A DNA stretch of 64,000 nt from Corynespora cassiicola. Its lineage: Eukaryota > Ascomycota > Dothideomycetes > Pleosporales > Corynesporascaceae. The notes under the pieces are model-generated. The model was given only the letters and a program-made list of their open reading frames with translations. It did not search any database and was not told the DNA's origin. Each line of letters opens with the position of its first letter. The stretch's first letter is position 1. The stretch lies in assembly GCA_022059125.1 (NCBI GenBank), contig JAEUWY010000012.1, positions 1,674,001 through 1,738,000 on the forward strand, given 5' to 3'. Positions 30,035-62,284 of this stretch are shown one piece after another. The position numbers and the translations under genes are program-made.

Positions 30035-32690
30035 ATGTCGAAGCCGACGGCCAATTGGGAAAAGGTTGGCGACCGGTTCTATCGCAAGATCCAGCTCTAC
30101 ACGGATGTGTTCGATCAGGATCTTGAGCTCGAGAACTACAATGTGGTGGGGGCCCCGTACAGCGGTGCTGTAGGTGTGTACCTCCGCCTGCCACGACGAC
30201 ACAAACATTGACATGTGCAGCTATCTACCGTGATGAGGACAAGATAATTACATACCGCGGCCCGCAGGCCTCGCGATCGAGCATCGACATATACAGTTGC
30301 GCTGGCAAACTGATCCGGCGCATCAACGTATGCTTCGCAGGCACCCACCGCGCGCCACCGCGTCGCTAACGTATACAGTGGGACAAGGGCACTATAAAGG
30401 GACTTGGCTGGTCAGAAGATGAGAAGCTCTTGGTTGTGACCGAGGACGGTACTGTCCGCTGCTATTATGACCTCCAAGGAGACTTTGTTCCCTTCACACT
30501 CGGTCATGTATGGCTGCCTGACGCAGAATGGGAGGCGTCGCTAATACAGTGTAGGGCGCAGAGGAACATGGCGTACAGTCGTGCAAATTTTACGGCTCAG
30601 GCTTCGTTGCTCTCCTCGGAAATAACCATCTCGTCTCGGTATCATCGTATACGGAACCACGACCGAAACTCCTCGCGATCCCTCCTTCAGATCCCATAAT
30701 ATCATGGTCGATAATACCTCCCGCATACTCTCTGTCTCGTTCTGTCGAGGTAATTTTGGCAATCGACAAGACGCTCTATGTTGTCGACGCGACTGAAGCA
30801 GAGGACCGGAACTTCGATGCTGGTCCCTTCAGGCATATCAGCGTCTCTCCCAAGGCAGAATTCCTTGCCTTCTACACAGACGATGGAAAGGTCTGGGTTG
30901 TCAGCGGAGATTGGAGCGACAAGTTGAGCGAGTATGATTCAAAGGTCAAGACGGTGCCCAAGGACATGCAGTGGTGTGGTTCGAATGCCGTTGCGCTAGC
31001 ATGGGAAGACGAGGTTCATTTGATAGGACCAAGGAGTGCGGCCACCAAATTCTACTACGATGCGTGGATCCATCTAATACCCGATGTGGATGGCCTTCGG
31101 CTCCTGACCAACGAGGTCTGCGAGTATCTCCAGAAAGTTCCAGACGAGACGGTGGATGTGTTCAGGTTAGGCTCGGATTCACCAGCGGCAAACCTACTCG
31201 AGGCATCGTCATTGCTCGATCAGAAGTCGCCAAAAGCAGACGATCTGATCCAGCTTATTCGACCATCCTTGGCTGACGCGGTCGACACATGTATCAAAGC
31301 GGCGGCGCACGAGTTCAACATCCACTGGCAAAAGACATTGTTGCGTGCGGCATCTTTTGGAAAGTCTGTGTTAGACCTCTACTCCTCCGACGATTTTGTG
31401 GATACCTGCGATACCCTCCGCGTGTTGAATGCTGTCCGCTTCTACGAGATTGGATTACCCCTGAGTTATGACCAATATCGACGACTCACACCTGAAAAGC
31501 TCATCGAGCGCCTGACGAATCGAAATGAATATCTTCTTGCTCTACGTGTAGCAGAATATCTCCATCTCCCGACTCCTCAGATCCACGGCCACTGGGCCCA
31601 ACAAAAGGTTCGCGTGTCAACCGACAGCGAAGAGGAGATCTGCAACCTTATTGTCAAGAAGTTGCATGGAAAGCCGGGTATATCCTTTGAAGAGATTGCT
31701 CGGGCAGCTTATGATGAAGGTCGCGTGCGCCTGGCTACTGAGCTGCTCAACTACGAGCCTCGTCCAGGCAAGCAGGTCCCTCTTCTTCTTAACATGAAAG
31801 AAGACACCATTGCTCTCGATAAGGCAATAGAGTCTGGAGACACAGACTTGGTTTACCATGTTCTACTTCATCTCCGCAAGAAGCTTCCACTAGCATCTTT
31901 CTTCCGCGTTATCAATAGCCGCCCTGTTGCGACCGCCCTCGTTGAGTCATCTGCTCTAGACCAAGATCGCGACTTGCTCAAGGACCTCTACTACCAAGAC
32001 GACCGCCGCCTCGACGGCTCCAACCTCCTCCTCTCCGAAGCCCTCTCCCAACCCTCCTTATCCGCCTCCCTCGACAAGCTCAAACTCGCCTCAAAATACC
32101 TTTCCGACTCGCGCGACACCTCGGCAACCTTCCAGCGCACCGCCCTCGACGACGCCCAAAAGCTCCTCCGCCTCCAAGAACAATTCGAAAAGGACCTCGG
32201 CCCCCGCGAAAACGTGCCCGGCACCGCTTCCTCCTCCTTCATCGGCCTCTCCGCCCATGAGACAATCTTCCAGCTCCTCCGCCAGGGCCACAACAAGCGC
32301 GCCCAAAAGGTCCAGTCCGAATTCAAGGTCCCCGACAAGACGTACACGTGGCTCCGCCTCCGCGCGCTCGTCAACGCGCGGCACTGGACGGAGCTCGAGG
32401 AGTGGGCAAAGCAGAAGAAGAGCCCCATTGGCTGGGAGCCGTTCTTTAATGAGGTGTTGTCCGCGGGGAATACGCGCGTGGCGAGTGTTTTTATCCCCAA
32501 GTGCACGAGCTTGAGTGTGGCGGAGAGGGTCGAGATGTGGACTAAGTGTGGGCTGTTGGTTAAGGCGGCTGAGGAGGCGTTCAAGGCAAAGGATAGGGGA
32601 TTGTTGGAGGATGTGAGGGACAAGGCGTCTGGGAGTGCGGCGGTGGAGGTGGAGAGGCTGTTGGGCATGTTGCCGCAGGGGCGGAGGTAG
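30035..32690 (+). CDS. VPS16: Vps16, core subunit of HOPS/CORVET tethering complexes
   Basis: Four exons (30035-30173, 30221-30327, 30379-30507, 30555-32690) give 836 residues, the usual Vps16 length. The N-terminus MSKPTANWEKVGDRFYRKI leads into the Vps16 N-terminal beta-propeller region (to about residue 410: GLGWSEDEKLLVVTEDGTV, then HISVSPKAEFLAFYTDDGKVW). The alpha-solenoid Vps16 C-terminal domain follows (about 510-830: EEIARAAYDEGRVRLATELLNYE, with conserved RLRALVNARHWTELEEWAKQKK). Vps16 bridges Vps33 to the class C core on endosomes and the vacuole, and is needed for SNARE-mediated fusion. Base composition flips from C-rich to G-rich near 32,400 inside the gene. It converges with the hydrolase gene 180 bp downstream. 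Confidence 0.96.
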
Positions 32691-32870: not shown

Positions 32871-34355
32871 TTACGCGCTGGTCCTCTCAAGCACCTCGGC
32901 GACCTTCTCCCTCACACCCTGCTTGCCCTCATATCGCTCCAAGAGCGTGGCAATCGCATCCTGAACACTCTGTCCCGTCGTCTCCCTCATGATCTCATCC
33001 TCACGCGGCAGCCCGATCCAGCTGTGGGGGTAATCGTTGTAATCGCGGTCGCTGATGAGCTGCAGGGGCTGTGCGCCTTCCTTCGTGGCGAAGAACTCAG
33101 CCACGTCCTCGCGGGAGACTTCGTCCAGGGTGTTGGGCTTCCAGTTGGGGCGCTCTTTCTTGCGCTCGATGAGGCGGGCCGTGACGCCCTCGACGAAGTC
33201 GGGGTGCGCCATGAAGCGCGAGGCGATGTCGTATTCGCGCTGGAACGTCTCGGAGATGGACCAGCTGCGGCCAACACGCATTTGGGTTAGGGCGACAGCG
33301 ACGGCGACGGGGGAGCGCGTGTGGAGGGTATCGATGGTGCTCTGGGCCCACGTCTTGAGGGGCTCGGAACTGTTGCTTGAGGTCTTCACCTCCTCGAGGG
33401 ACTTGAGGATGCTTTGCACCGAGGGCTGGTCCTGGTGGAAGACGCGGTCAATGGTCGACCTGAGCTCGCCCGAGATGGCGGGCTTCTCGGAGGGGAGGCC
33501 GGTAACGTATTCTTCGATGGTGGCGTTGATAATCTTGAGACGCGCATCCAGCTCCAGGTAATCAGGGAACTGAAGCTCAGCGAGACGCGATTCGAGAGCC
33601 TGGAGAGAAGAGCTGTGGATGTAGTGCGTAGCGATGCCATGGTAGAAGGCATCGACTCCCCTAATCTGCTCAGAAGTGAGCGCAAGGTAGGTTCCCATGC
33701 CACCCTCCATGCGAGGAAGGAAGAAAGAAGCGCCAACGTCGGGGAAGAAGCCGATGGTGGTCTCGGGCATGGCGAAGACGGTGTTTTCAGTTGCGATACG
33801 GAATGGGGCGTGAATGGAGAGCCCGACACCACCACCCATGGTGATACCGTCCATGAAAGCCACATAAGGCTTCTGGTATGTCGCAATCAGGTGGTCCAGC
33901 TTGTATTCTAGGCCAAAGTAGTCTGTGCTCTTCTTTTGACCCTCCGCGCCCGTCTGGTTCCACTTTGCGAGGGCCGCAACGTCTCCTCCGGCGCAGAATG
34001 CGCGTCCCGAACCCTTGATTACCACGACACCAGCCAGTTCTGATTTGGACCATTCCTGAAGGCGAGGGATGATCTTGCGGGCCATAGAGCCGTTCAGCGA
34101 GTTGAGCTTCTTAGGGCGGTTGAGTTCGATGGAGCGAACTCCGTAATTGTTCGAAAAGACGACATCGTCGGGATCATCCTCGGGCAGGGGGGCGAATTGG
34201 TTTTGCGAGGGCGTTGAGTACTGCATCTTGGGTTAGCATTGAGGGTAGGATTGGGATTGGGATTGTGCCCTTGGGACCCGGCAATGGATGGAGGGGCTTA
34301 CCGCTCTGGTCCCGCTCAGCCAGGCGGGCTGTGTGATCTTTGCGCGCAAAGGCAT
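32871..34355 (-). CDS. EHD3: 3-hydroxyisobutyryl-CoA hydrolase, mitochondrial
   Basis: Two exons, 34355-34302 and 34226-32871, giving about 470 residues. The acceptor may lie 6 nt further in (CAG before 34220), which would drop two residues. The first exon supplies MPLRAKITQPAWLSGTRA, a basic, hydroxyl-containing mitochondrial presequence. The enzyme is a crotonase-fold member: the oxyanion-hole segments are VVVIKGSGRAFCAGGD and GITMGGGVGLS, and the catalytic-glutamate segment is MPETTIGFFPDVGASFFL. The C-terminal HIBCH extension (SRFMAHPDFVEGVTARLIERK, NWKP) separates it from enoyl-CoA hydratases. It releases 3-hydroxyisobutyrate from its CoA ester in valine catabolism. The gene is divergent from mitochondrial EF-Tu. 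Confidence 0.93.
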
Positions 34356-39714: not shown

Positions 39715-42064
39715 ATGGAAGACGATTCTGCGAGCGAAGCGGGCCTTCAAATAGACCCTAGCGATACCGAGCTTGTACCTTTGGTTTGCGATGATGAGGT
39801 TGAGCTGTATGCGTCCTCTCATGTTTGCTCAGACTGCACAAGAGCGCTTCGTTTTGCCTTTACTTGGGTGGGGAATGAAGATGATGACTTGAGCGAAAAC
39901 AATGTAGATTCCGATGTCGCGTCGGCTTGGGACTACTCTCCAGCCGCAAGTCCTTGCTACTCTCCAACCTCTCCAAGAAGCCCCCACCATTCTCCAACCT
40001 CTCCAAGAAGCCTCTGCTACTCTCCGACAAGTCCCCAGTATTCACCAGTAAGCCCACGCTACTCGCCAACAATGCCTACAAACGAACCAGCAAGCCCTCA
40101 TTCGACCACATCTGCAAGATCGCGGTCACAGTCAATACACCCTCAGTTCCCCAAGCCATCCCGTTTTTCCAAAAGGAAATTCCACATCCTTACCCGGGAG
40201 GCTTTTTTCCGGTCCACCAATGAAGGCTGCGCTATTTGCATCAAGATCAACATACAGATGCTGCAGCATCAAGCTTCTTCGGGTTTGGATATAGAACGCG
40301 AAGATGAGGAAGTCTATACGTTTTTTGATATCACCGAGACTACACAATTATCACTCTGTATTTATTTCGGGACACCAACAGGATCCAAGGAATTAATCGC
40401 TTCATTTGAATTAGAACCAACTGGTAAGTAATTCTTTTTGCCTTTTTTTCTTCCATTGACCACTGTGTGTAGACTTAAACTTAGAGATGGCTTCGCCTCA
40501 TGTTGAAAAGACCATCAATCTTAATTCAGCGTGCAAAATGATGGACCGTTGGCTGAGAGATTGTGTGGATACGCATGACGTTTGCCGAATCAGACCTTCA
40601 ACAAAACAACGCCCCACTAGGCTTCTCTACTTAGGATTGGAAGAGTCCATGGTTCGCTTAGATACTGCCGAAGCGACTGGCTTTCAGCACCCATATATGA
40701 CTCTAAGCCATTGTTGGGGTGATGCCGACATCCTCAAACTCACCTCTGAAAGCATGGAAGAATTCAAGCGAGGGTTGCAGGTTTGCAGGCTTCCAAAGAC
40801 ATTCCAGGATGCCGTAGCGGTTGCTAGAGGACTGGGTGTGTACTATCTTTGGATCGACTCTCTATGCATCCAACAAGACTCCACTCGAGATTGGCAAATA
40901 GAATCCAGCAGAATGTACATGGTGTATGCTAACAGTATATGCAATATTGCCGCTGCAGGTGGGAAAAACAGTCATAGCGGTTTGTTCAAAAGTCGCTCGG
41001 AATCGCATCTACTGGCCTTCCGCCCCGCCTCTGTATACGTAAGATTATCCGAAGGAAAGTTATTCCAACCATACAGCATAAAGAGCAGTGCAATGGAGTA
41101 CGATGACTTCTTCAGTGCTCCTCTACTCAAGCGCGGCTGGGTTATGCAGGAGAGATTTACTGCACCTCGGGTGGCTTACTTCGGCCAAGAGAATCTATAT
41201 TTCGAATGTCACTCCGGTCTTAAATCGCAGTCATCGCCAGATGGCCTTGACATCCAGCAGCCCGCATCCATGATAAAAGCCACCGCAAATTTAACACTAC
41301 AAAACTGCACACGGATCTGGGAAACCTTGGTCGAAAGCTATACGAAAATGAAGCTCACCGTAGACACCGATATCTTTGTAGCCTTATCGGGTATCGCCAA
41401 ACGGTTTCAGGACGTGAACAGAGACCGATATGTCGCAGGTCTTTGGGAGAAGGACATTCTACGCGGTCTCTGTTGGTACACTCGTTTTCCAGCGCAGAAA
41501 GATCCAGCTGCTGTATATCGCGCCCCTTCTTGGTCATGGGCTTCGATTCGTGGGCCTGTTGCATATATGGAGAAGCAGCAACAAGGGCCAATATCACTTG
41601 CTAACGTGAAAAGCTTTGATGTTAGTCTAGCTACCAGTGATCCAACTGGAAGCATTCTAAATGGAAGCATCACTTTGCAGGGTGGAGTGTACAGGATGGA
41701 AATCCAGAATGATATCAATGAAGAAGAAAAACTTTTCTACAAGGGAAAGAACCTACTTCGCTCAAGCCGAATGTGGCAGCTCGTCGAGGAGGATTATGTT
41801 CGCGAACCAGATAAGACGCGTGAGACATTCGTCTTGCCACTTTGGAGGAGTATTCAGCACTCATACAGCGCTACCGAAGGAATCCTACTGCAGCCTAAAA
41901 GTGGAGGCCATGGCGAGTACCAGCGCACTGGTTACTTCTCAGTTTACGAGTACGGGTTCGATGGCGATTCCAAACTACTAGATTATCTTGCCCCCCATTT
42001 AGATCCGGAGATCCCATGCTCAGAATTTGATAGAGAGAAGGGCCACACAATCATCATTACATAG
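39715..42064 (+). CDS. HET-domain (heterokaryon incompatibility) protein with RNA-polymerase-II-CTD-like N-terminal repeats
   Basis: Two exons (39715-40423, 40473-42064) give 766 residues. The HET domain covers about residues 311-465. It has the signatures [40 protein letters not shown] (shown here as consecutive landmarks around nt 40,795-40,880), [11 protein letters not shown], and downstream [12 protein letters not shown] and [10 protein letters not shown] proteins trigger programmed cell death after non-self recognition and may be TIR-related effectors. The N-terminus is unusual. Residues 74 to about 121 contain [28 protein letters not shown] and YSPTMPT, which resemble the Rpb1 C-terminal heptad. 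A small Cys-containing segment (HVCSDC, then CAICIKI) flanks it. The C-terminus (residues about 560-766) is typical of HET proteins and has no named domain. The gene lies in an AT-richer accessory stretch. Confidence 0.9.
39934..40077 (+). repeat. CTD-like heptad repeat coding region with a 30-bp tandem unit
   Basis: Two neighbouring 30-bp units encode [Y/H]SPTSPRS-x-x and share nearly all bases. Three YSPxxPx heptads follow, encoded by different synonymous codons. The first part thus looks like a recent DNA duplication, whereas the later heptads look older and retained at protein level. Confidence 0.85.
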
Positions 42065-45445: not shown

Positions 45446-45926
45446 AAGCACGGAGTATACTCATCAATGTATAAAACATAATCAGCTTTACAGAAAGAAT
45501 TTAATTTAAGACTGCCGTTCCTCATGAGAGTTCCTCAACCCATGAATGCGTGAATTCTAACGTGTGAAAAGGCCGGGCACATGTAGAAGTGGCAACGGGG
45601 TTTTATGGATAAAGTAAACCCGACACCCAAGGTTCAAAACGTGGCTAACCTCAGCCTCTAAAGGTTCCTGCGTCTGACGGTCTGAGGCTATGCCAAAACG
45701 GGGCAAAAACATGTACACAACGCAACTTGCGAAGAAATTCGCTCACTCCGCAGGACATTTATTTGGGAGTCTATAAACCAATCGACTACAACCACCAAAC
45801 ATTAAACCACCAGCAAGCCAACCAGCAAAGCACGTGCAGCGCCAAAGCGCGCGCCCCCCCCCTCAACTCTCTCGCGCGCCTCCATCCATCCATACCTTCC
45901 ACTTTTGCCCTCCATCCCACCAAGAA
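45446..45926. other. Intergenic region upstream of the FAD oxidoreductase
   Basis: No gene. The right part is very C-rich and contains the start of a C-rich to G-rich switch that continues into the next gene. One CCGCA pentamer lies at 45748-45752. Confidence 0.55.
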
Positions 45927-47546
45927 ATGGGCGCCCTCATCTCCACCCTCCAAACCACCGCCCGAGGCCTCAAATCGATTTTCGGAATCATATCCTCGCT
46001 GACGACCGAATTCAACGCCGCCCTCGTCCGCGCCTCGCTCTCCCCCGGCCTCCCTACCCCAACCCCCACATCCCCATACTGGCTGCACGACCCCCCATTC
46101 CCGGAGCTGACCAAGATCCGCTCGTCGGAGAAAGAGGGGGGATTGCCGCGCGTGGTCGATGTGGCCATCATCGGGTCGGGCATCGCGGGGGCGGCGGTCG
46201 CGCGGTCGCTGCTGCACGAGCAACGGCGGCTACGGCGGCGCAAGAATGTCGTTAGCGAAGGCTCGAAAGAGGGGGGCAAGGTGATTGTTTTTGAAGCGCG
46301 GGACTTGTGCAGTGGGGCGACGGCGCGGAACGGCGGGCACATCAAGCCCACGCCCTACGAATCCTTCTCGCGCTTCAGCAAGATGTTTGGCAGAGAGCGA
46401 GCGGCGGCTCTGACGAGGTTCCAGACGCGCCATGTCGAGTGCCTGGTCGGGCTGTGCGAGGAGGAAGGGATTGGCGTGGCGGAGGCGCGGGAGGTGGAGA
46501 CGGTGGATTTGTATCTTGACGAGGAGAGTTTTTGGAGGAGTTGTGCCAAGGTGGATGAGGCGCGGAGGTGGATCCCCGAGGTCGAGACTGCGGTGTTGAA
46601 TGCGAAGCAGGCGAAGAAGGAGGTGGGTGTGAATGATGGGGTCGTGGGCGCGATCAAGTATCGCGCAGGGGCAATATGGGCGTATCGCTTTGTCGTGTCC
46701 ATCTGGAAGCGCCTTCTGGACGAGTTCCCTGATACCCTGCTTGTCGAAACGAATACGCCTGTCCTCTCCCTGCGCGCATCCGAGGGCAAGGCAGCAGGTT
46801 TCCCATATGCCATCGAAACTCCTCGCGGCACTGTACTAGCCCGTCATGTGGTCCACGCTACAAACGCCTTTGCGAGCCACTTGGTGCCCGGATTGCGACT
46901 CAAGATTACTGGAGTAAGAGGCCACATGTCTGCTCAACGCCCAGGAGACAAGTTTCCCCACTCGGGGGGGAAACGATCCTGGAGCGTGGTCTATGGCGGG
47001 GGCTTCGATTACGTATCGCAAAGGCCATCAGCACCGGACCACCATGCTGGCGACGTCATGCTGGGTGGTGGATTCATGCGCTCATTGAAACAAGGCGTGG
47101 ACCAAGCTGGTCTGTACGACGATGGCACAAAACTTGACCCCTTGTCCGTGGCCCATATTGCGGGAATTTTTCCTTCCATCTTCAGCCCCAATTGGGGCCC
47201 GGGTTCTCATGTAAAAGATGTGTGGACCGGAATATTAGGCATGACAGGAGATTCATTGCCTCTGGTGGGGAGGCTTGACGAGAGGTTAACAGGCCGAAAA
47301 ATTAAAGACACTACATCAAGGCACGGGGAATGGATCGCGGCAGGTTACTCTGGAGAGGGCATGGTATGGGCATGGCTCTGTGGGACTGCCCTGGGCATCA
47401 TGGTTGCTGGAACCGAAAAAGAACATTTAGAAGAAGTCCCAGGCAGGCCTGGAGGAAAACTGGCGGATTGGCTCCCTCGCGAGCTCCTGATATCGCCATC
47501 AAGGTTGCGAAGCGCGGATTTTTCCAACTTGACTGACGAGGTGTAG
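45927..47546 (+). CDS. FAD-dependent oxidoreductase of the D-amino-acid-oxidase (DAO) family
   Basis: Intronless, 539 residues from MGALISTLQTTARG. An upstream in-frame ATG at 45834 would add 31 low-complexity residues and is less likely. The Rossmann dinucleotide-binding motif is VDVAIIGSGIAGAAVARSLL (about residues 76-95), with the acidic strand end VIVFEARDLCSGATARNGGH typical of DAO proteins that oxidise amines or amino acids. The C-terminal FAD segment is GEWIAAGYSGEGMVWAWLCG. The nearest functional relatives by motif are gamma-glutamylputrescine-oxidase-like enzymes; the substrate is unknown. The gene converges with the Baeyer-Villiger monooxygenase (195 bp between stops). The first about 190 nt of coding sequence are extremely C-rich and the next 500 nt G-rich. 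Confidence 0.88.
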   Translation: MGALISTLQTTARGLKSIFGIISSLTTEFNAALVRASLSPGLPTPTPTSPYWLHDPPFPELTKIRSSEKEGGLPRVVDVAIIGSGIAGAAVARSLLHEQRRLRRRKNVVSEGSKEGGKVIVFEARDLCSGATARNGGHIKPTPYESFSRFSKMFGRERAAALTRFQTRHVECLVGLCEEEGIGVAEAREVETVDLYLDEESFWRSCAKVDEARRWIPEVETAVLNAKQAKKEVGVNDGVVGAIKYRAGAIWAYRFVVSIWKRLLDEFPDTLLVETNTPVLSLRASEGKAAGFPYAIETPRGTVLARHVVHATNAFASHLVPGLRLKITGVRGHMSAQRPGDKFPHSGGKRSWSVVYGGGFDYVSQRPSAPDHHAGDVMLGGGFMRSLKQGVDQAGLYDDGTKLDPLSVAHIAGIFPSIFSPNWGPGSHVKDVWTGILGMTGDSLPLVGRLDERLTGRKIKDTTSRHGEWIAAGYSGEGMVWAWLCGTALGIMVAGTEKEHLEEVPGRPGGKLADWLPRELLISPSRLRSADFSNLTDEV

Positions 47547-47741: not shown

Positions 47742-49864
47742 TCAGGCCTTCACTAATTCGAACCCCTTCCAAGTGTCCAAAGCATCGCGGATTTCGACAA
47801 CATAATTTGGGATGCCACCTGGGTGCATTAGTTATTGTTCAATTTCGCAAATCTGCAAATACACGTACCGGCATAATTAACCTGTTCGAAAGCCTTACCA
47901 GGCATGCTGCCACCCATATAGGTACTCTTCGTGGTCGGGAAGAGTGTCGCATCGCTCAGGGCATTGATTCGCTTCTTCCACTCCAGGCTCGCTTCCTCAG
48001 TGGGGTTGATGTACTTCAGGCCCTGCCTATTCGCCTTCCTGATCGCATCAACAACCCAACGGCCCTGGACTTCGACGGTGGACGGTCCATTGGAAAGTAG
48101 AGTGGGTCCATGAGGGCCATAGAGATGGAACATGTTGGGGTAGCCGGAGATGGTGGTTCCAAGGTAGGTGTACGCGGCTTTGCGCCATTCGTCTTTCAGG
48201 GCAGTGTTCTTGATGGACTTGAGACCCATGTTGGTCATGCCGCCGGTGGTGATATCCTATGCAATCATCATTACCACAAGCCCTTTAACTTAGATTCAAA
48301 AAAGACTTACAAATCCAGTGGCAACAGCGATCACGTCAAACTCATAATGCTCGCCATTCTCGAGTTTGATACCAGTCTCGGTGAACTCGGCAATCGCGTT
48401 GTCCTTGATGTCGATGATATCCACGTTGGGGCGATTGAATTGTTCGTAGTAGGTCTGCTCGAGACATGGGCGCTTGACACCGAAATAGTGGGGCATCTTC
48501 AGTGGTGCGAGAATATCGCGTTTTCGTGGGTCTCCAATGCGGTTTCGGACGTTCTTTGCCCAAAAGTTGTATGCTTCTTGATTGGCCTCGGCATCGACGA
48601 GCATCTGGCAAGATAAGTCGTTGGCATAGTCTGTATGAAGGAAAACGACTAGGATCAAGAATACTTACGTCCTTGTAGTTGCCAAGCCAGAACCTAAAGC
48701 CACCATGGTCCCAGAGCTTGTGGTAAAATGCCTCCCTCTCCTCTGGGTCATCATCAAATGTATTCTTCTCATGCATGCCATAGAAAAAGCCGCCAAAGCA
48801 TTTCTCACGCAAGTCATACAGTCTGTAGTACCAGTTCTTATCGCGGTTCTGCTCTTCGGGAGTAAGGTTGCGTTTGCCCATGGGAACCGCAAGATTGGGA
48901 GTGCGCTGGAAGACCTTCAAGTCCTGCACGACTGGCGCAACTTCCTGAATAATTTGCACTCCAGAAGCACCGGTACCGATGACGGCTACTCGCTTGTTCT
49001 TGACATCGACGCCTGCGGTCTGTTTAGCAATGACCTCTGTATAATGAGTGGGATGCGAAAGCATACCTTCCTCTGGCCAGAACGAGGAGTGGTGGATAAC
49101 GCCTTTGAACTTGTCCAAACCCTTGAAATCGGGAATATACCGCTTACTGGCAAAGCCCGCTGCGACAATCAAATACTTGGACTTCGCCAACCGCCCATCC
49201 TCAGTCTTGACATGCCACTTGCCCTCGTCCGTATGGAACTGCGCACCCACCACCACCGTCTCAAAAGAGCAATCCTTGCTCAAATTCAAAACACTGTCAA
49301 CATGATCAAAGTACGCCCTCAACTCCTTGTAGTCGGGATAATTGGTCGACCAATTCCAATCCTTGTACGCCTCCGGCCACGAAAACTGATACTCGGGGAC
49401 TTCGGAGTCGACCCTCGCCTATATGTATCCAAACACGCGATTAGTAAACTGGCCCAGAACCAAGGAAACGGGAGTTTAGTAAACGATGCAAGGCACAAAG
49501 CGCAAAACAGTGGAGAACGAATGGCGCAACGTACTCCAGGGTACCGGTTCCAGCGCCAAGTTCCTCCAAACGAGGTGCCGGCCTCGTAGATGACGGCCTT
49601 CAAACCTTGCTCGCGGAGCGTCTTGAGGCAAAATACTCCACCTGTTTAGTACCCTGATGGTTAGCGAACGCCGGCGCATGGGGATGACAGACGCAGGGCA
49701 GAGGGTACGAGGTACGTACCGAATCCTGCGCCGACGATCAGGACATCGACGTCCAAGTCGTCATTGTAAGGGTATTCGGTTCCGCGTCGCCGGGAGTATT
49801 CCTTGAGCTCCGTATGCATGTTTGGGGGCAGGGCAGGGGTCTGGGTCACGTTGTTGCCGTTCAT
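47742..49864 (-). CDS. Flavin-containing Baeyer-Villiger monooxygenase
   Basis: Six exons (49864-49720, 49641-49535, 49418-48669, 48604-48311, 48256-47869, 47818-47742) give 586 residues. The FAD motif is VLIVGAGFGGVFCLKTLRE. It is followed by GTSFGGTWRWNRYPGARVDSE, which carries the conserved GGTW and the Arg-Asp-Ser of this family. The type I BVMO fingerprint FKGVIHHSSFWP matches FxGxxxHxxxWP exactly (nt about 49,060-49,095). The NADPH motif is VAVIGTGASGVQ, and the second fingerprint region is VIAVATGFDITTGG. The enzyme inserts oxygen next to a ketone carbonyl to give an ester or lactone, using NADPH and O2. It is divergent from an esterase gene and two genes from an AlcR-type regulator, a context suggesting ketone catabolism. 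Confidence 0.94.
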
Positions 49865-50705
49865 GGTGGCGATTTTGACAAGGCTGTTTCAAGTACTGGT
49901 GATATATGGTGATATATGGTGCCATGGTCGTATGATACTCATATTGTATTTATAAAGATTCTCTCCCAGACTTTGGTTCTCCTCAATTTGCAAGACACTG
50001 ACTCCAATGCTGTGTACTGCGGTTCACCAGGGATGAACGGACCCGGCGAGGAGGTAGACGGAACCGCGAGTACGAAGACAAGAGGTTCTCCGCAAACACA
50101 CCCATGTTGAAGGCGTACACGTCAAAGAGGGGGATACAGCGTCACGCGAGCCACAGCTTCCGGCGGTGGAAAGGCAGTTTGTTCGAGTCGCTGAGGTTGG
50201 CTTGGGAGCAACAGCGCGATTGGGTCGGCCAAATGCCTTTCCGTTACGAGGTAGCTAGCATTGCTTCAGAAGAGGCACTCTGGCCTATCGTCAATCTGTG
50301 TACGCCCAACGTCTATACAAAGATGGCCAGGGAGGTGTCACACCCACACGACAGATTAGGAAGTCTTACTAAGCTCTCTCCCGTGTCCTAAAAGGGAAGC
50401 GTCTGGAAGAGGAATAGCGTGCGCTTCCCCCGCTTCTCTTGCGGAACCGCACCTCGGAGCCGTAATGCAGAGGAACCGCGGGCTGCTCGCCACTTTGCTG
50501 AAAAGGGAGCCGGCGCAGAGGGGTTTGCATGCTCCCCTGCAATTGATGACGCGACATTGCGGAAGCTGGGCTTAGCGGAAAACTTCCAAACATAGGAGCT
50601 TTTGGATTCAAATACCTTTGATCTGAAGCCTCAATTGAGTGTCGTAGTTGGTGCTGTAGCTAATCGGTAATTTCTAGTAATACCCATTTACTCGCTGATC
50701 TGACA
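49865..50705. promoter_or_regulatory. Divergent promoter of the BVMO and esterase genes
   Basis: 841 bp between two start codons. TATATA-containing decamers (GATATATGGT x2, 49901-49920) lie about 40-55 nt before the BVMO ATG on its strand. Pentamers matching the AlcR half-site (T/A)GCGG occur at 50090-50094 (as CCGCA), 50440-50444, 50447-50451 (as CCGCA) and 50558-50562. About 1.6 would be expected by chance in this length, so only the paired site stands out. Confidence 0.5.
50440..50451. promoter_or_regulatory. Candidate AlcR-type operator, TGCGG-N2-CCGCA
   Basis: Perfect inverted repeat of the TGCGG half-site with a 2-bp spacer, about 255 bp before the esterase start and 575 bp before the BVMO start. 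The Aspergillus regulator AlcR is known to use (T/A)GCGG cores in repeated arrangements, and a homologue is encoded 2 kb away. Binding is inferred. Confidence 0.4.
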
Positions 50706-52056
50706 ATGTCTCTCTCCGCCGAAGCGACCAAAAAACTCGAACAGACCGTCGATGCAGCCTGCGCGGACCCCAAGACCGATATACCTGGTGTGAGTATTGT
50801 GGTTGTGGGCAAAGATGGAAAGGAGCTTTTCGCACGTTCCGCCGGCAGACGAGGGGCCTCCAGCTCTGAGCCAATGACGCTCGACAACGTCTTTTGGATT
50901 GCCTCTTGCACCAAAATGGTCGCCGGTATTGCAGTCATGCAGCTTGTCGAGCAAGGCAAGTTAAACTTGGATGATGGAGATCAATTGGAGAAGTTGTGCC
51001 CCGAACTGAAGGATATCAAGGTTCTGCAAAAGGACGGAACTTTGGTAGAGAAGAATAAGAAGATTACGCTCAGAATGCTTCTGAGCCACACTGGTACATA
51101 ATTTCGTTACTTACCTTTGATTGCCTTGTCGCAGCCTCTAGACTGACCACGCTGATAGCCGGCTTCAGCTATACCTTCTTCAACGAGCAAGTGCGCGACT
51201 ACAGCCATCCAATTGGATACGACGAGTTTTCCGGTCATATCAAAGACATTATTCAACCCCTGGTGCACCAGCCGGGAGAAGGTTGGGAGTATGGGGTCAA
51301 CATCGATTGGGCAGGTTTGGCGCTGGAGAGGACGACGGGTACTTCCCTTAACGAGTACCTTCACAAGCATGTCTTCAAACCGTTGGGATTAGAGAGCATC
51401 TCAATGTTCCCGAGTGAGGAAATGAAGAAGAACCTGGCGCTCATGAATCATAGGAAGCAAGACGGCTCGCTCATAGTCCGTGACCATCTCTTACGGAAGC
51501 CATTGGTGGTTGAGGCCGCAGAAGTATCAAGTGTTCTAAACAGTGGAGGTGCAGGGTGCTTTGCAAAACCCTCCGACTATGGACGTAAGTGTTAATGCGT
51601 TCCGCTAAGTATATTTTTTGACGTTGACGATTCTTAGAAATCATCGCCACCCTCCTGAATGATGGCACCTCGCCCACAACAGGGGCTCAGATCCTCAAGA
51701 AATCTACAGTTGATGAGATGTTCAAAAACCAAATCCCTTCGTTCCCAAATTTTGCGCGGCAAGGTATTCCGGCCGCGAAGCCCGATTTGACAAATCCAAT
51801 ACCCGAGGTCTATCCCGTGCCAGGGAACCCCCCTCAAGGTTGGGGGCTCACTTTCATGCTCAGCAACGGCAGTGTTACGGGGCGATCGAAAAGCACCGGA
51901 TTTTGGGCTGGCCTGCCCAACTGTTGGTGGTGGTGCGATCGTGAGAAGGGGGTTGGCGGCATAGTATGCACTCAGATTCTTCCTTTTGCAGACGCCAAAG
52001 TCTTGGGGCTTTGGTTCGATGTCGAGGGACAAGTTTACAAGGCTCTCGCTTCTTAA
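50706..52056 (+). CDS. Beta-lactamase-fold serine esterase (class C / EstB-LovD type)
   Basis: Three exons (50706-51093, 51159-51584, 51638-52056) give 410 residues. The nucleophile motif SxxK is present as ASCTKMV (nt about 50,901-50,921), and the catalytic tyrosine motif as YGVNIDWAG. The protein lacks a signal peptide. Fungal relatives are carboxylesterases and acyltransferases (LovD family) rather than true beta-lactamases. The start MSLSAEATKKLEQTVDAAC is well placed at the head of the family alignment. Located head-to-head with a Baeyer-Villiger monooxygenase, it is a natural candidate to hydrolyse the ester or lactone that enzyme makes; this pairing is an inference. Confidence 0.88.
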
Positions 52057-52765
52057 AAGATAGCCACTATGGGAAATTCAAATGCGTTTCCATTTGAACA
52101 TCTTGAGCAAGGGGGTTGCCCGTGCCACACATTGGTGAAGGCCTCGAACAGAGCCCGATTATTCAGTCGCAGCCATGCCCATGCAACGTGGGCATAAAAT
52201 AAGGTTTAGTACCAATGCGGCGAAGGTTTCGGGCGTTCGAGGGACGTTCTGCGAGGGAAAAAAAGTTTCTCGCGACGCACAACCCATCCGATGGCAAGAA
52301 TAGCTACAGGGTGATGATCTCTCGGAAAGATGGGGAAGGGAGGGGCGAAGCCTGAGCAAACAAATCACCAAGCAAGGGGTCTTGTGATGTGTCAGTCCCA
52401 AACGGAAGAGCAGGAAGGAAACGGGTAGCCCATGCGTAGCTAATGGTGCGGGTTTCAGAGAAGCGCCGACGGTTCGTCCGGACGCGATCCGCGAGGAAGT
52501 TGATCGTTTTTTGGCGAAAGGGGACTCGTCGCTTGCGAGGCCATGGAAGCTGACGTGCAACTTGAGAGTTTCCCGTTAGCAAAAACAGGGTTGGCCGTCG
52601 CGCGGTGTACTAGTAGGCCTTCCCCGCAATAACCATGTGGAGCTAGTCTGACACGAGCAGCGGGGTGCATATTAGCATCGGTACGAATCACAGCTCCGTC
52701 TCCAGCGTCGTAGGACAGTCTCACTCCCTTATCCTATTTTCGACTTCAAATCCCGTTCTGCAGCC
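52057..52765. other. Intergenic, promoter of the AlcR-type regulator
   Basis: No gene. AlcR-type pentamers occur singly at 52216-52220 (TGCGG) and 52624-52628 (CCGCA), compatible with autoregulation but close to chance expectation. Confidence 0.5.
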
Positions 52766-55665
52766 ATGAATTTCGTGGATGTCCAACCCAAATCTTTCCT
52801 GGACTATGCGTGGACGACGCCCTCTCCAGCGCCGGCGAGCACCGCGAAACCTTCTAAAACTAGCAGAAAGCAGAACCGGTGCTGCGACCAGTGTCGGAAA
52901 GGGAAGAGGGCGTGCGACGCCGCAATCTTAGAGGATACGTTACTGGACGCCAGCGGGACGTCCGCCAGCAACCCAACCGTTTTCCACTACAGCGGTGAGT
53001 TTGCGCGAATCTGGGATGGAGGCCGTCGATTATAACTGATGGCGCAGATAACTTTGGTCCCCTCGCTCCGTGCAGCAATTGCGAAAAGACCAAGAAGAAC
53101 TGCACATTTGAGTGGTTACGGTCGCAACGATTATCGCAAGCGACGCCTCCATCGAACACTGCGCCCCCGCCAAAGCGACGCCGAACACAGAGCAATTCTT
53201 CGAACAATTCGCACAATCGTGTGGAGGGTGTTCGACAACAGGCGAGGGAGGCCAAAGCCCCGCAACCTGCAGTTTTGCCGGATACAGCGGATGGTGGAGA
53301 CTTTGTGTCACGAACAACACCCATCGAGTACGGAGTAACATTCGCTGATTTTCCCGGCGGTATTCCTTCGTTCGATTGGAGTATTCCAAGTATGTTCCCG
53401 ACCGACCACACAGGTCTTGGCAGTGGCGGCATAGTTCCCAGTGCTGTGGACAGTCTGGATTCATTGAGCGAAATGATTCAAGACGATGAGGAGGGCACCC
53501 CACTTGATCGTGATTCTGGTCACGGATCGTCTGTCGATACATGTTCGGAGACCATGTCTGAAAGTCCGGATGCAAGCCCGTTTACAGGCGGGCCGCCCGC
53601 AGCCGTAAAGGCTGAAAAACATGTCAACGGGAACGGAACAGTAGCACGTCTGCCGCACAAGAAGAGGCGTCGAAGCACTTCTAGTGCTCTTTCTAATGGC
53701 GCGTCTTACCCAGCCTTGTCTTTGGCGAGCAATTTCCTCTCAACCACGAACAACACGTTTTTGACCGAGGGCCTGCTCAAGATATACCATGATAGTTTCG
53801 AAAACGCACTTTCCTGTTGGCTCACCGAACGGACCTGCCCTTACAGCAAAGGCTCCGACCTCTCTCTTGCAAATGACACCGGACCAGACTGGAATCGCAT
53901 ATACCATCGCGTGTTCCGACTTGATCGCCTGGCATCATCGGTACGAGGAAGGAACCTTAGTTTTGCCGAAGACAAAGCCGCTTCTAAAGCTCTCAACTTG
54001 GCCATCTTTTCGTTCGCGACCCAGTGGGCTCAGTCGGGCGAGCGGAGCAAATCAAAGTACCCATTCCACAACAGCGGCATCGATGAGAAAAGCTATGCCT
54101 TCACCGGGGAGTCTGGTGGAACGGACTTTGATCGCAAGCTCCAAATTTCTGCCTGGCACGAAGCACGCATGGCGTTGCAAAGCGCATCTGAGATTGAATC
54201 TTTCCGCGTTGTCTTGGCGCAAATCGTGTTCTCCTTGACTCAAAGACCCATTGGACCGGAGGAGACCAACGGCAAAGACGTCAACAAGCCTTCCATGGAT
54301 GCGGCAGATGTGCCAGCGGGAGTGCACTGTGGGGAAGACGCTACCTTCGAAACAAACCAGTCGGAAGACAAGGAGATGGCTGAGTGTGAGGACCTGCTCT
54401 CTAAATTGAACCTTACTATTGATGGAGAAGGACCGCCGGTTCATTTAGAGCAAGGACTACGGCTCATTCACTCCCTCCGATCCCGAATGACCATGACCGG
54501 AAACGGATTCCCCCGGCCGAAAGCCTCGCCGCGAAATGCGAAACAAACCCGAATGACCCCGAACAGCCTCGATGCCTCCGATCGAGCCACTGTTGATCTT
54601 CTCTTTTGGCTTGGCGTCATGTTTGACACGTTGTCATCTGCTATGCACAAGCGCCCGCTAGTAGTGTCCGACGAGGATAGTGACATCTATTCGAATGAGC
54701 CAAGACCCGCACAAAACGAGACATGCAATGGAAAGCCAAGCACCGATGCAGTTGCAATTGCGCCGGCCCCGACCGAAGGTCTGTGGGATAACTACCTGTT
54801 CGCTCGGCAGCGTAATCGTCTCCAGGGAAATCCTGTGAGGTGGCCCTGCTCGTTCGACCAGGCAGCGTCACTCTTATGTGATGCAGCCCCTGTCAAGGTG
54901 CTCCTCTTCCGAAAGGTCACGCGCATCCAGACGCTCCTTTCACGGAATGCACGTGGAGAAAGAGTTGAGAAGGCCATCAGGGATGCTTTGGATGTGTACG
55001 CCCACTGGGAGAAGCTCTATGCGCCGTTTATCCGAGATTGTATCGACAAACACGATCGCCTCCCCTCTCGGATCCAGTCCTGGTATATATGTCTGACAGG
55101 CCATTGGCATCTGGCGACATTGTTGTTGGCCGATTTGATCGAGATTGTCGACGACTCGGAACTGAGTACGGAGGTGTGCCGCAACAATCGTATGTCGTCC
55201 GCGTTTGTGGCCAACTTCCGTGAGCGGAACTGCTACTCGCTCTCAGATCTTGCACGATGTGCGTGTCCCCGCGAGGATGCATCCTTCCCGAATTCGAATG
55301 AATTCCATTTTGCGGTCAAGCAGGGAGCACTCTTGACGGAGCCATGGACGGCGGTCCTCATCCGCGCATTTGCAACCGCTGGAGTGATCTTATTGGAATC
55401 AGAGACGCCGCCCAATTCGACTAGTCCGGATCCTTTCTATCAAGAACAAAACTTCCGGAAGGCTGATGATTGCGTCAAGGCGTTGTGGTACCTTGGAAGA
55501 AAGTCGGACATTTCCCTGTCGGCGGCGAAGATCTTGGGCGATGCGCTCAAACAGAGACGGAAAGGCGTTGATGAAAAAGTGAATGATATGAGTTCTTTCT
55601 TGGAGGCGGAGCTGTGGGAGGGTTTCGAGGAGATGCATGGAGCTTTTGGCGTTGAGTGTGTTTGA
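52766..55665 (+). CDS. alcR: AlcR-family Zn2Cys6 transcriptional activator
   Basis: Two exons (52766-52994, 53048-55665) give 948 residues. The zinc cluster is CDQCRKGKRAC, then a long loop, then CSNCEKTKKNC followed by TFEWLRSQR. This is the hallmark of Aspergillus nidulans AlcR, whose cluster is also asymmetric. Similarity continues through the whole activator: YHDSFENALSCWLTE, LFWLGVMFDTLSSAM, KRPLVVSDEDS, RWPCSFDQAASLL, LPSRIQSWYI and LGRKSDIS are all close to AlcR segments. AlcR activates ethanol-utilisation genes (alcA, aldA) and itself. Here the loop between Cys3 and Cys4 is 34 residues, against 16 in A. nidulans, and the intron falls inside it. It could be the orthologue or a paralogue with new targets; its neighbours are not alcA or aldA. 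Confidence 0.92.
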
Positions 55666-57510: not shown

Positions 57511-59645
57511 TCAAGTCAAATCTATCATCTCCACTTCCTCCAAGTTCCTAGTAGAACGAGGAGTCGATTTGGAAGCGTTCTGGATTGTCGTTAACTTCGT
57601 CGCTATGGAACTCGAGCTTGATGAGCGGATTGTGACATCATCATGAGTGTGATTGTTGAAATGCTTTAGACGTGCCGAACGTATACTAGCGGCATCTGCC
57701 GATGGTGATGTAGGTTGTGCCACATGATGTTCATGTAAAGTTCCGGCCCTGGCCTTCGATATGACGGGAGTTGATTGGTGGCCTGGTTTTCGGAACGGGC
57801 TCTCGAATGGGGAACTGCCATGTTGCTTATGTGTTTGCAAACTATGGCCAGCCTGCATCGAGAGTGGCGATAGTAGCGGCCATGCTGGATTATCTCCAAC
57901 ATTCGAGTGTCTGGCTATAATGTTCGTGGCGCGGAAATTGCTTACTGTGATGAATGTTTCTGCTTTTTCTAATCGTTCAATTGCTCCGAAATCATCAAAA
58001 TCTGATTCTATGTCCGATACGCCGCTATGAGTGGCTTTCCTGGAATTGATCTGAGCAGGCAGGGCTTCATCATCAGACACGAGGTCAACCACTGATGTCG
58101 ACGAGAGGGTGATCCCTCTTGTAGCAGGCTTGTCAGATTCAATTTCTGGAATAGGCTGGCCGGCTTTTGCTCTGCGCTTTTTTGGTCCCCTGGCTTGTTT
58201 CGGTGGCTCTTCATTGTGATCAGTCATCTCAAGCTTTCGCTTCCGTCTATTCTTGGGTTCCGACGCTGGCGGGTCGAGGACCTCGGCAGGAAGATATTTT
58301 CGGAGAAGATGATTAGGAAAAGCTTCCCACTCTTCGCGATGGTCGCCATCAAAAAGCTGGTCTGTGCGACCAGTCCAATATCCAGTTCGATCTCCTTCAA
58401 AGTCTTGCCCGGATAAAGTAGTAAGAGGGAATGGGGAAAACGTGATTTTTTGCACAAAGGCTCTCTCAGTGCCCTCATCAGCCCCCTTTTTCGCTCTTCG
58501 TTTTGTGATTTTCACGTCGTAAGGGTTTCCTTCGTGGCGAACAGCTTCCGGATTTGCCAAAGCTCGAGTCAGAAGTACAGGGCCTACCCAGTGCATATAA
58601 CCCCGTCCCCATATATTGAAGCGAGAGCTAGTAAGGTTGAGTAGATTTATCTCGTCGATGGGTTGATACCAGCCATGGCGGAGACTACGTAAATTCCGCA
58701 ACTGGTCGTCCGTAGATATCGTTGGCTTGTTGTATTTGTTGAGTGTCTTAAGGTCTGGATAGTCGAATGGAACAAGGCCATGATATTTTTTCGGCATCCA
58801 GCTGACAAACTGCTCTCTCCAATCGACGCAATCTTGCTTAGTCCTACAGCGACAGAGAGATGTGCCGAGGCCGGCCTTAAGAGCCTGTATGGCGAGTGTA
58901 GGCCCACATTTCTCCAATCCCTTGGTGTCGTAGTCCCCCCCGCAGAGCATCGCAAAAAGGACAAGACCTTCTCGGTCGAATCCGTGCTGCCGGACGATGT
59001 CTGCCCTTCGTATCACTCTGACACTGGTGCCGCTTTTCTTTGTGTTTTCCTTCGAGCGATCTGTAGATCCCTTCTGCTTCGACACCCTATCATCCCTAAT
59101 GAGTAGGCTGCAACCAAACATGAGTGTGTCGCTATCCTGAGACCAAACCGCATCAACGATCCCCAGTTGCTGTAGCCTTGCGCACTCTGCCTCACTCTCT
59201 CCAGGTGCTTCATGATATGGAATTCGAAAATGCCGGAGCATCTCTTTTAGTAGTCTCAGGCTCTCATAGTCAATCCTACTTCCTCCAATTCTTCCGCGTT
59301 TCCATGGTCGTGACGGGCCGTCGAATACAAACAGCAATTGTACGTTGTACGTCAAGAGGCGGCAGATTCGCCAGAAGATAGCTTTTTCAATCCCTTGAAA
59401 AGCAGGTTCATTGGATTCTGATCATCTACGTATCAGCATGGTTTTACACTTGCGTTCCGTGTAAGCTCACTTTGCCGGATGAGATAGACCTGTTGCGATG
59501 TCAGGTTGTTGAATCGCCAATCTGCTTCATCGACAGCGATGCGTAATGGCCTCTCATGCTGATTATAATGCTCTTCAGCGAGTTGCGCGAGAGGAATGGT
59601 GCCTTCTTCGGTCTTTATCATATCCCACAACGCCGGTATCCCCAT
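57511..59645 (-). CDS. XPG/Rad2-family structure-specific nuclease (GEN1/Yen1-like)
   Basis: Two exons (59645-59471, 59417-57511) give 693 residues starting MGIPALWDMIKTEEG. The N-terminal XPG domain has the first metal-binding acidic residues in AVDEADWRF, then LLFVFDGPSRPWKR. The internal XPG domain has APGESEAECARLQ (paired Glu), VWSQDSDTLMFG (DxD) and CGGDYDTKGLEKCGP (the helix-two-turn-helix entrance). All catalytic acids are therefore present. Absence of a PCNA-binding motif and of a long XPG spacer argues against FEN1, EXO1 or XPG. The arrangement fits GEN1/Yen1 Holliday-junction resolvases. The C-terminal 280 residues are disordered, with basic KKRR clusters that may be nuclear-localisation signals and CDK-type sites. 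Confidence 0.82.
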
Positions 59646-60467: not shown

Positions 60468-62284
60468 ATGGCCCAAGTATGTCAATTCAGTCACTATCAA
60501 AATATCGGAACTAATCAGATATCAGCCTCTCGATAAAAGAGTTTATACTCTCGCCGAAGGTACCTTCAACATCACTATCTCTCCATCAGTGATCTAGTAA
60601 GGTTTACTGTTGAATAGGGCGTCCAGTCCAGGATGTAGCCAGCTCGACGGTCCTCAAAGGCTCCACACAGCGTGGCGGGGGGCTCGCCCTTTTATCGAAT
60701 ACTCAATTGATTGAGACTTTGGCCCATTTCCCCAGAGAACGTATCCCAGAGAGGTAAGCTGCGAGAAAGATACAGATACTTCAGTATCGTTGACCCGTTG
60801 ACCTCGTCCAGGACTGTCCACGCCAAAGCTGCAGGTGCATGGGGTGAATTTGAGGTCACTCACGATGTCACCAACATCACTTCCGCCGACTTCCTTAGCA
60901 AGGTCGGCAAGAAGACCCAGGTGTTGATGAGAATCTCTACCGTCGGCGGCGAAAAGGGCTCTGCTGATACCGTCCGTGATGTCAGGGGGTGGGCTATGAA
61001 GTTCTTCACAGACGAGGGGAACTACGATTTGGTCGGCAACGATCTTCCGGTGTTCTTTGTCCGTGACCCCATCAAGTTCCCGTCGTTGAATAGGAGTCAC
61101 AAAAAGCACCCTCAAACCAATGTACCCGATGCGTCAATGTTCTGGGACTTTCACAACAACAACCAAGAGGGTGTCCATGCCCTTATGCACCTGTTTGGCC
61201 AGCGTGGAGTTCCAGCTTCCTTGCGCCACATCAACGGCTACGGCGTGCACACCTTCAAGTACGGCAATGTCACAGATGGAACATTCAAATACGTCAAGAT
61301 TCACTTCAAACCGGACGCCGGCATCCAAACTCTCGATGATGCCGAAGCCACCCGTCTGGCTGGGGAGGAACCTGACTATCACGTGAAGGACATGTACAAC
61401 GCCATCGAGAAAGGCGATTTCCCCTCATGGACAATGTATCTCCAGGCAATGGACCCAAAGGACGCGGAGAAGTATTACGTCAATATATTTGATCCAACGA
61501 AGATCTGGCCTCACAAAGACTGCCCACTAATTCCTGTTGGCAAGCTCACACTCAACAAGAACCCGAATAACTACTTCGCAGATATTGAGCAAGCCGCCTT
61601 CTCGCCCTCAACCATGCCCCCTGGCATCGGGCCGAGTGCTGACATCATGCTTCAAGCGCGAATGTTCTCGTATCCTGATGCGGCAAGGTATCGAGTTGGA
61701 CCGAATTATCAGCAACTTCCGTGCAACAAGGCAAAGTATGTGTATACGCCCTTCCAACGTGACGGACCAGCACGGATAGATGGCAATTACGGGAGCGACC
61801 CAAACTATGGTAAGCCACAATTTTGGTTGAACAATGTTGCCTGCCAATTCATTGCTAATACATACCAGTTCGATCATCGTTTCTTAAGGCGAAAACTAAG
61901 GAAGTTGACGTTGCACACGACGAATGGGTTGGCAAGGTCGGGCTATGGAATGCTGAAGTTTCAGACGACGACTTTGTGCAGGCACGTGAGCTGTGGAAAA
62001 TCTTCCTGGAGCAGGGTAACGACCGGATTTTCATCAACACCCTCAGTGGTAACCTGAACAAAGCTCTGCCCGAAGTACGAAAAGAGTCGATCAGTAAGCC
62101 ACGATCAGCTCCTACGCATATTTATCACGTACTAATCTGCTCAGAAATGTTCGCAAAAGTCGATGCAGAAATCGGGAAGAGGCTTGAAAGTCGTATCGAA
62201 GAATTGCAGGCCAGTGGCAACAAGACGAAGGAACATGTCAAAGGTCCGTATGGCCTGATGGAGGCGTATGGCGGCGGCTATTAG
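60468..62284 (+). CDS. Small-subunit haem catalase
   Basis: Six exons (60468-60476, 60526-60559, 60618-60753, 60812-61809, 61869-62093, 62145-62284) give 513 residues. The catalytic His lies in RTVHAKAAGAWGEFE, the active-site Asn in VGNDLPVFFVRDPIKFP, and the proximal haem Tyr in RMFSYPDAARYRVGPNY, all intact. It decomposes hydrogen peroxide to water and oxygen. Length and the lack of a C-terminal flavodoxin-like domain mark a small-subunit (clade 3-type) catalase. It ends in AYGGGY, so there is no classic C-terminal peroxisomal signal, and no secretion signal either. The first coding exon is just ATGGCCCAA. It was inferred because the conserved start PLDKRVYTLAEG needs an upstream Met and phase agrees. 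Confidence 0.93.

What the first reader, a model, noticed from the sequence alone, without database searches (positions are those of the whole stretch)
47742..55665. AlcR homologue sits beside a Baeyer-Villiger monooxygenase/esterase pair: a possible ketone-to-alcohol catabolic module
Seen: a BVMO with an exact FxGxxxHxxxWP fingerprint, a head-to-head beta-lactamase-fold esterase, and immediately next a full-length AlcR-family activator. Known: BVMOs turn ketones into esters, esterases split these into alcohol and acid, and AlcR in A. nidulans drives ethanol use and responds strongly to butan-2-one, whose BVMO product would be ethyl acetate. Inference: the three genes form a route from a ketone through an acetate ester to ethanol plus acetate, with the ethanol step under the same regulator. 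This would give the ketone response of the alc system a metabolic reason.
Basis: partly seen in the sequence, partly recalled or inferred. Interest (0 to 1): 0.86.

Follow-up and report, generated by a model that had tools for sequence, protein, structure and literature searches.

The report
Ketone-breaking gene pair beside ethanol regulator
In a mould, two enzyme genes that could together turn ketones into an alcohol plus an acid sit next to a relative of the classic fungal ethanol switch AlcR, and comparison with other fungi suggests that the esterase tends to stay near that switch even where the ketone enzyme is not seen, so the link may be about splitting esters more than about ketones.

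Summary
Observation confirmed. The regulator is 100% identical to a Corynespora cassiicola protein. Shared contig is linkage, not proven adjacency. In 12 of those 13 species no named BVMO row is among the 120 best hits, so the esterase looks like the steadier partner of alcR. The shared BVMO/esterase promoter has clustered WGCGG half-sites and TGCGGAACCGCA, a perfect inverted repeat of the half-site; the tested ADH, ALDH and alcR promoters show no significant pairing, so regulatory evidence is only suggestive. Butan-2-one as substrate is untested. Verdict: a real, partly conserved candidate module for making alcohol from esters or ketones; AlcR control unproven.

The parts
47742..49864 (-). 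Type I Baeyer-Villiger monooxygenase gene; exons 49720-49864, 49535-49641, 49067-49418, 48669-49012, 48311-48604, 47869-48256, 47742-47818; 568 aa
   Evidence: model, GT..AG introns, fingerprint; PDB 6y48, 848 bits with the 586-aa model; 89% to Zopfia P0121
49865..50705 (.). Shared divergent promoter region of BVMO and esterase, 841 bp, 7 WGCGG half-sites, 4 pairs within 30 bp
50440..50451 (.). TGCGGAACCGCA, perfect inverted repeat of the half-site TGCGG with a 2-bp spacer
   Evidence: 1 in the window, 0.02 expected; 8 places in the genome; 180 places of WGCGGNNCCGCW
50706..52056 (+). Beta-lactamase-fold serine esterase (PF00144); exons 50706-51093, 51159-51584, 51638-52056; 410 aa; Ser67-x-x-Lys70, Tyr174
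52766..55665 (+). AlcR homologue, Zn2Cys6 activator; exons 52766-52994, 53048-55665; 948 aa; no other match at E<=0.001 in the genome

Best explanation
A catabolic module that feeds alcohol to the alc system. The BVMO (identified by sequence) would oxidise a methyl ketone to an alkyl acetate; the esterase (identified by sequence) would split it into a primary alcohol plus acetate; alcohol and aldehyde dehydrogenases elsewhere in the genome would finish the route; and the aldehyde formed would activate the neighbouring AlcR homologue, which would in turn activate esterase and BVMO through WGCGG sites in their shared promoter. The esterase is the steadier partner of alcR; the BVMO is a wider-spread partner of the esterase that adds ketones to the input. 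Shown: genes, orientation, linkage in other species, motif content. Inferred: substrates, coupling of the reactions, AlcR control, loss of the BVMO elsewhere.
For: Gene identities. Esterase and alcR on one contig in 13 of 16 comparable species, including contigs of 65.6, 202 and 308 kb and consecutive tags NX059_010959/010960 in Plenodomus lindquistii. BVMO and esterase on one contig in 15 of 18 comparable species, including contigs of 51.7 and 86.6 kb and consecutive tags MPDQ_006719/006718 in Monascus. All three on one contig in Zopfia. The esterase tree groups the 12 alcR-linked rows with Corynespora, Zopfia, Clohesyomyces and Rhizodiscina (96/85). Half-site clustering: 4 pairs against 0.40 expected, p=0.005 by Markov simulation; 2 of 1196 background windows (both from one locus) and 0 of 365 GC-matched ones as high. 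Zinc-cluster cysteines and arm residues of the AlcR family conserved. The ALDH promoter has a nominal excess of single half-sites (14, p=0.021).
Against: Half-site pairs are not significant in the promoters of the best ADH (p=0.16), the ALDH (p=0.11), an acetate-transporter-like gene (0 pairs, start only approximate) or alcR itself (0 pairs), so the test has no working positive control here. The number of half-sites alone is weak (7; p=0.07; 87 of 1196 windows as high). The inverted repeat is not enriched genome-wide (180 against 201 for the reversed control; the exact 12-mer 8 against 9), and no alc gene was recognised by eye beside the other 7 copies. WGCGG ranks third, not first, of 256 W+4 motifs. 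Parastagonospora nodorum tags (172920 and 080580, different strains) suggest that alcR and the esterase are apart there. Alternaria arborescens has BVMO and alcR rows on different contigs.
Confidence: 0.42

Rival explanations
1. The BVMO-esterase pair is a functional unit for larger or xenobiotic ketones (for example long methyl ketones or steroid side chains), and alcR is only a neighbour kept by descent.
For: In 14 of the 15 BVMO-esterase-linked species no alcR row is listed (the alcR list shows only 120 of 369 hits). Several homologues carry the name 'steroid monooxygenase (CpmA)'. BVMOAFL838 converts C8-C12 2-alkanones. Chromosomes of this fungal class tend to keep their genes while shuffling order (mesosynteny, recalled), so large shared contigs are weak evidence of adjacency.
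Against: Linkage on short contigs and consecutive locus tags; esterase and alcR share a contig also where no BVMO row was seen; half-site cluster in the shared promoter.
Confidence: 0.35
2. One reading: butan-2-one to ethyl acetate to ethanol plus acetate, giving the ketone response of the alc system its metabolic reason.
For: The chemistry fits the enzyme classes; the bacterial MekA/MekB and AcmA/AcmB pairs are recalled to do this (paper not held). Alc genes respond to 2-butanone (PMC5371717 passage).
Against: Butan-2-one is described as a gratuitous or non-physiological inducer. In the A. nidulans alc cluster, alcP is listed as SMP-30/gluconolactonase-like and alcS as acetate-transporter-like; for alcO, alcM and alcU I saw no family, so a counterpart there is not excluded. 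Esterase-alcR linkage is seen without this BVMO.
Confidence: 0.12
3. The regulator is AlcR by descent but controls another pathway in these fungi, so nothing about ethanol can be carried over.
For: Only the DNA-binding domain could be compared with A. nidulans AlcR; its inter-subdomain loop is 34 residues here against 16; the best ADH and AldA matches are unlinked and lack significant site pairs.
Against: Arm residues and all six cysteines conserved; no second copy in the genome at E<=0.001.
Confidence: 0.2

Closest known systems
A. [quoted passage not shown]
   Same: An AlcR regulator next to a hydrolase-type gene; DNA-binding domain 50% identical in the alignment
   Different: No ADH match beside alcR in the window; the neighbour is a PF00144 esterase, not the SMP-30-like alcP; a BVMO is added
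Bacterial methyl ketone modules mekA/mekB (Pseudomonas veronii) and acmA/acmB (Gordonia), recalled, paper not held
   Same: BVMO plus esterase, ketone to acetate ester to alcohol plus acetate
   Different: Here a fungal BVMO clade (one distant bacterial locus in the scan); esterase of the beta-lactamase fold; candidate regulator a Zn2Cys6 protein; substrates unknown
Solved fungal-type BVMOs 6y48 and BVMOAFL838 (5j7x)
   Same: Type I BVMO, 848 and 558 bits over nearly the full length
   Different: Genomic partners of those enzymes not examined; activity of the Corynespora enzyme untested
LovD and Pc15g00720 (6kjc) class C beta-lactamase-like enzymes
   Same: PF00144; SxxK and active-site Tyr region aligned
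   Different: Only about 122 bits; natural substrate unknown

Membership tests
Type I Baeyer-Villiger monooxygenase | FxGxxxHxxx(W/Y)(P/D) fingerprint | tested here: met
   FKGVIHHSSFWP, residues 188-199
Type I Baeyer-Villiger monooxygenase | Two Rossmann GxGxxG motifs | tested here: met
   GAGFGG and GTGASG
Type I Baeyer-Villiger monooxygenase | Ketone to ester activity | not testable with these tools
   needs purified enzyme
Class C beta-lactamase-like esterase (PF00144) | PF00144 over the curated cut-off with SxxK | tested here: met
   145.4 bits against cut-off 27; SCTK at 67
Class C beta-lactamase-like esterase (PF00144) | Hydrolysis of alkyl acetates | not testable with these tools
   PDB relatives include transesterases and peptidases
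AlcR | Six cysteines CX2CX6C...CX2CX6C and the basic N-terminal arm | tested here: met
   only PDB match up to E=0.1 is AlcR 1f4s, E=2.4e-5; R34, Q36, N37 invariant in 13 rows; the role of the arm is recalled
AlcR | 16-residue loop between the zinc subdomains as in A. nidulans | tested here: not met
   34 residues; a long loop in all 12 homologues aligned. I count this as a lineage difference, not as exclusion
AlcR | Linked to alcA as in A. nidulans | tested here: not met
   best ADH match on C13, alcR on C12; ADH matches on C12 are more than 500 kb away
AlcR | Needed for growth on ethanol | not testable with these tools
   needs a deletion strain
Ketone catabolic BVMO-esterase module (mek/acm type) | BVMO and esterase genes adjacent | tested here: met
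   linkage in other fungi
Ketone catabolic BVMO-esterase module (mek/acm type) | Induction by ketones through a linked regulator | tested here: inconclusive
   half-site cluster only

The most novel reading that the evidence does not exclude
In these fungi AlcR is primarily the regulator of an ester/ketone-to-alcohol pathway, and the strong response of the A. nidulans alc system to butan-2-one is a relic of an ancestral AlcR circuit in which ketones, or the aldehydes derived from them, were genuine inputs.
Probability: 0.13. Interest if true: 0.75.

Novelty: new variant of a known kind. Interest (0 to 1): 0.5.

Why it matters
The alc system is among the best studied fungal regulons (so described in the PMC1794588 passage) and its promoter is a standard expression tool, yet the biological reason for its response to a ketone is, to my knowledge, open. 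An enzyme gene that stays linked to alcR across many species gives a concrete candidate for an ancestral input and a direct test. The BVMO-esterase pair, linked from Dothideomycetes to Dipodascopsis (a Lipomycete), also suggests a natural partner for fungal BVMOs, whose physiological substrates are called widely unknown (abstract of PMC4498894 in the listing).

Tried and rejected
Raw WGCGG counts were not convincing (7 in 841 bp; p 0.07 by simulation; 12.5% of sliding windows of the 64-kb window, 87 of 1196 genome windows and 9 of 365 GC-matched ones as high); only the pair statistic, chosen after seeing the sites, was. Pairs in the alcR promoter: none. The other 7 genomic copies of TGCGGAACCGCA were inspected by eye from open frames only, without a family search; an alpha/beta-hydrolase-like frame (L041) and a GMC-oxidoreductase-like frame (L046) lie near two of them, neither clearly driven by the site. 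That alcP of A. nidulans is this esterase was considered and rejected: it is listed as SMP-30/gluconolactonase. A scan of bacterial and archaeal genomes for this BVMO clade by two conserved peptides gave one distant locus (31%), so no bacterial gene context was compared. Paper searches: AlcR with Baeyer-Villiger and esterase gave one aflatoxin review, seen as a listing; 6Y48 with Baeyer-Villiger none; the inverted-repeat letters nothing on AlcR among the 15 listed of 250. That TGCGGAACCGCA equals an A. nidulans alcA target, and that the half-site is WGCGG, are recollections that no call confirmed.

Not done with what was fetched: L023-L026 (other ADH loci, a 45% esterase paralogue on C10, a 59% BVMO paralogue on C2) were never analysed. 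No structure was predicted.
Full report
What is there. The window lies in a 44.35-Mb genome of 23 contigs. Its regulator is 100% identical over 948 aa to the deposited Corynespora cassiicola (strain Philippines) protein BS50DRAFT_588759, so the organism is that species (order Pleosporales) or very near it; the contig lengths differ (2,316,887 in the listing, 2,554,010 here), so it is another assembly. Three genes occupy 47742-55665: a BVMO on the minus strand, and on the plus strand a PF00144 esterase and an AlcR homologue. The BVMO model was corrected: an 18-residue insert relative to the solved structure 6y48 fits an in-frame 54-nt GT..AG intron, leaving 568 aa. The fingerprint FKGVIHHSSFWP is exact.

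The regulator. Pfam gives no hit at E<=0.01, but among the PDB chains the only match up to E=0.1 is the AlcR DNA-binding domain (1f4s, E=2.4e-5), and the genome has no second match. In an alignment of 12 homologues with that domain, all six cysteines and the arm residues R34, Q36 and N37 are invariant. The loop between the zinc subdomains is 34 residues against 16 in A. nidulans. Beyond this domain I could not compare it with A. nidulans AlcR.

Linkage in other species. Gene order in other fungal genomes could not be searched, so I used exact contig lengths and locus tags in the protein listings as markers (each showing the 120 best of 369, 7634 and 1588 hits). Left out: all unnamed (metagenome) rows; second alcR rows of Bipolaris maydis and Pyrenochaeta; four Diaporthe BVMO rows and one of Paecilomyces variotii; and many named esterase rows (Aspergillus, Penicillium, Fusarium, Xylaria, Verticillium and others) in which I saw no species shared with the other two lists. 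Esterase and alcR: same contig in 13 of 16 species. The misses are Ascochyta lentis (two strains, M3J07_002279 and M3J09_002287, so possibly close), Parastagonospora nodorum (two strains, far-apart numbers, likely a real exception; its esterase falls in the alcR-linked group of the tree) and Bimuria (its listed esterase falls in another group). BVMO and esterase: same contig in 15 of 18 species; the misses are Paecilomyces lecythidis, Rasamsonia byssochlamydoides and Sarea. Paecilomyces variotii was not paired because its rows are from different strains; counted as a miss it would make 15 of 19. Only two species are in both the BVMO and alcR lists: Zopfia (same contig) and Alternaria arborescens (different contigs).

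How strong is that. Sharing a contig is not adjacency, and chromosomes of this class are recalled to keep gene content while shuffling order. The weight rests on short contigs (Polyplosphaeria 65.6 kb, Pyrenochaeta 202 kb, Setomelanomma 308 kb for esterase-alcR; Neonectria 51.7 kb, Lepidopterella 86.6 kb for BVMO-esterase) and on tags (Plenodomus lindquistii and Monascus consecutive; Cirrosporium and Thermoascus crustaceus two apart). A listed length is that of the longest contig of a 90% cluster, so a row may stand for more than one strain.

History. In a maximum-likelihood tree of 44 esterases (midpoint root) the 12 alcR-linked rows group with Corynespora, Zopfia, Clohesyomyces and Rhizodiscina (96/85). 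The other BVMO-linked Dothideomycete rows (Lophium, Lepidopterella, Delphinella, Lineolata) fall in a second group with rows of other classes, and so do Bimuria and Alternaria burnsii; an old duplication of the esterase is therefore not excluded. A simple reading is an old BVMO-esterase pair, alcR linkage gained within Dothideomycetes before Zopfia (unplaced in the class), Polyplosphaeria and Corynespora parted, and later absence of the BVMO in many lineages. The absence is inferred: only 120 BVMO hits are listed, the lowest at 64-67% identity, whereas Zopfia is at 89% and Clohesyomyces at 79%. Unexplained: no C. cassiicola BVMO or esterase is named among the listed proteins although the regulator is.

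Promoter. The 841-bp shared promoter holds 7 WGCGG half-sites (3.5-3.7 expected, p about 0.07) but 4 close pairs (0.40 expected, p=0.005; 2 of 1196 overlapping background windows, both from L037, and 0 of 365 GC-matched ones). One pair forms TGCGGAACCGCA, found at 8 places in the genome (reversed control 9); the general form WGCGGNNCCGCW is at 180 places (control 201), which makes 0.003 expected in a stretch of this size. The statistic was chosen after seeing the sites, WGCGG ranks third of 256 comparable motifs, and the best-ADH, ALDH, transporter-like and alcR promoters show no significant pairing, though the ALDH promoter has 14 single sites (p=0.021). I treat it as a lead.

Chemistry. BVMOAFL838 (5j7x, 558 bits against 848 for 6y48) makes alkyl acetates from C8-C12 2-alkanones (PMC4966971, abstract and passages). 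If the Corynespora enzyme is similar, the pair would give acetate plus a primary alcohol, whose aldehyde could induce AlcR; acetaldehyde is the stated effector in A. nidulans (PMC10526403, passage).

Verdict. The interpretation needs a shift: esterase-alcR looks like the steadier link, and the BVMO is a wider-spread partner of the esterase that was not seen in most alcR-esterase species. AlcR control and substrates remain to be shown.

Noticed in passing
window 57511-59355 (-): XPG/GEN1-like nuclease frame (PF00867), the next long frame downstream of alcR, on the opposite strand, 1845 bp away.
   Followed up: no
window 45834-47546 (+): FAD-dependent DAO-type oxidoreductase (PF01266) convergent with the BVMO, 195 bp from its stop.
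   Followed up: no
window 60711-62054 (+); also 40460-42058, 30555-32684, 32874-34229: Catalase (PF00199, 525 bits); HET-domain frame; Vps16; and an ECH_2 enoyl-CoA hydratase/isomerase-family frame on the minus strand.
   Followed up: no
window 14001-18000: GC drops to 0.40-0.46, lower than the 2-kb stretches on either side (0.596 and 0.511).
   Followed up: no
G000:C1:52054-53687 and C1:73239-74872: Two aldehyde dehydrogenase copies with identical scores in inverted orientation about 20 kb apart near a contig end, suggesting a recent inverted duplication.
   Followed up: no
G000:C16:81381-139400: A BVMO (44% to the window's), a Gpr1/Fun34/YaaH gene and a GMC-oxidoreductase-like frame near one copy of TGCGGAACCGCA lie within about 60 kb.
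   Followed up: partly
P0121-P0125, P0127, P0128 and others: Many fungal BVMOs of this clade carry the name 'HK97 family phage prohead protease', an evident annotation error that has spread.
   Followed up: no
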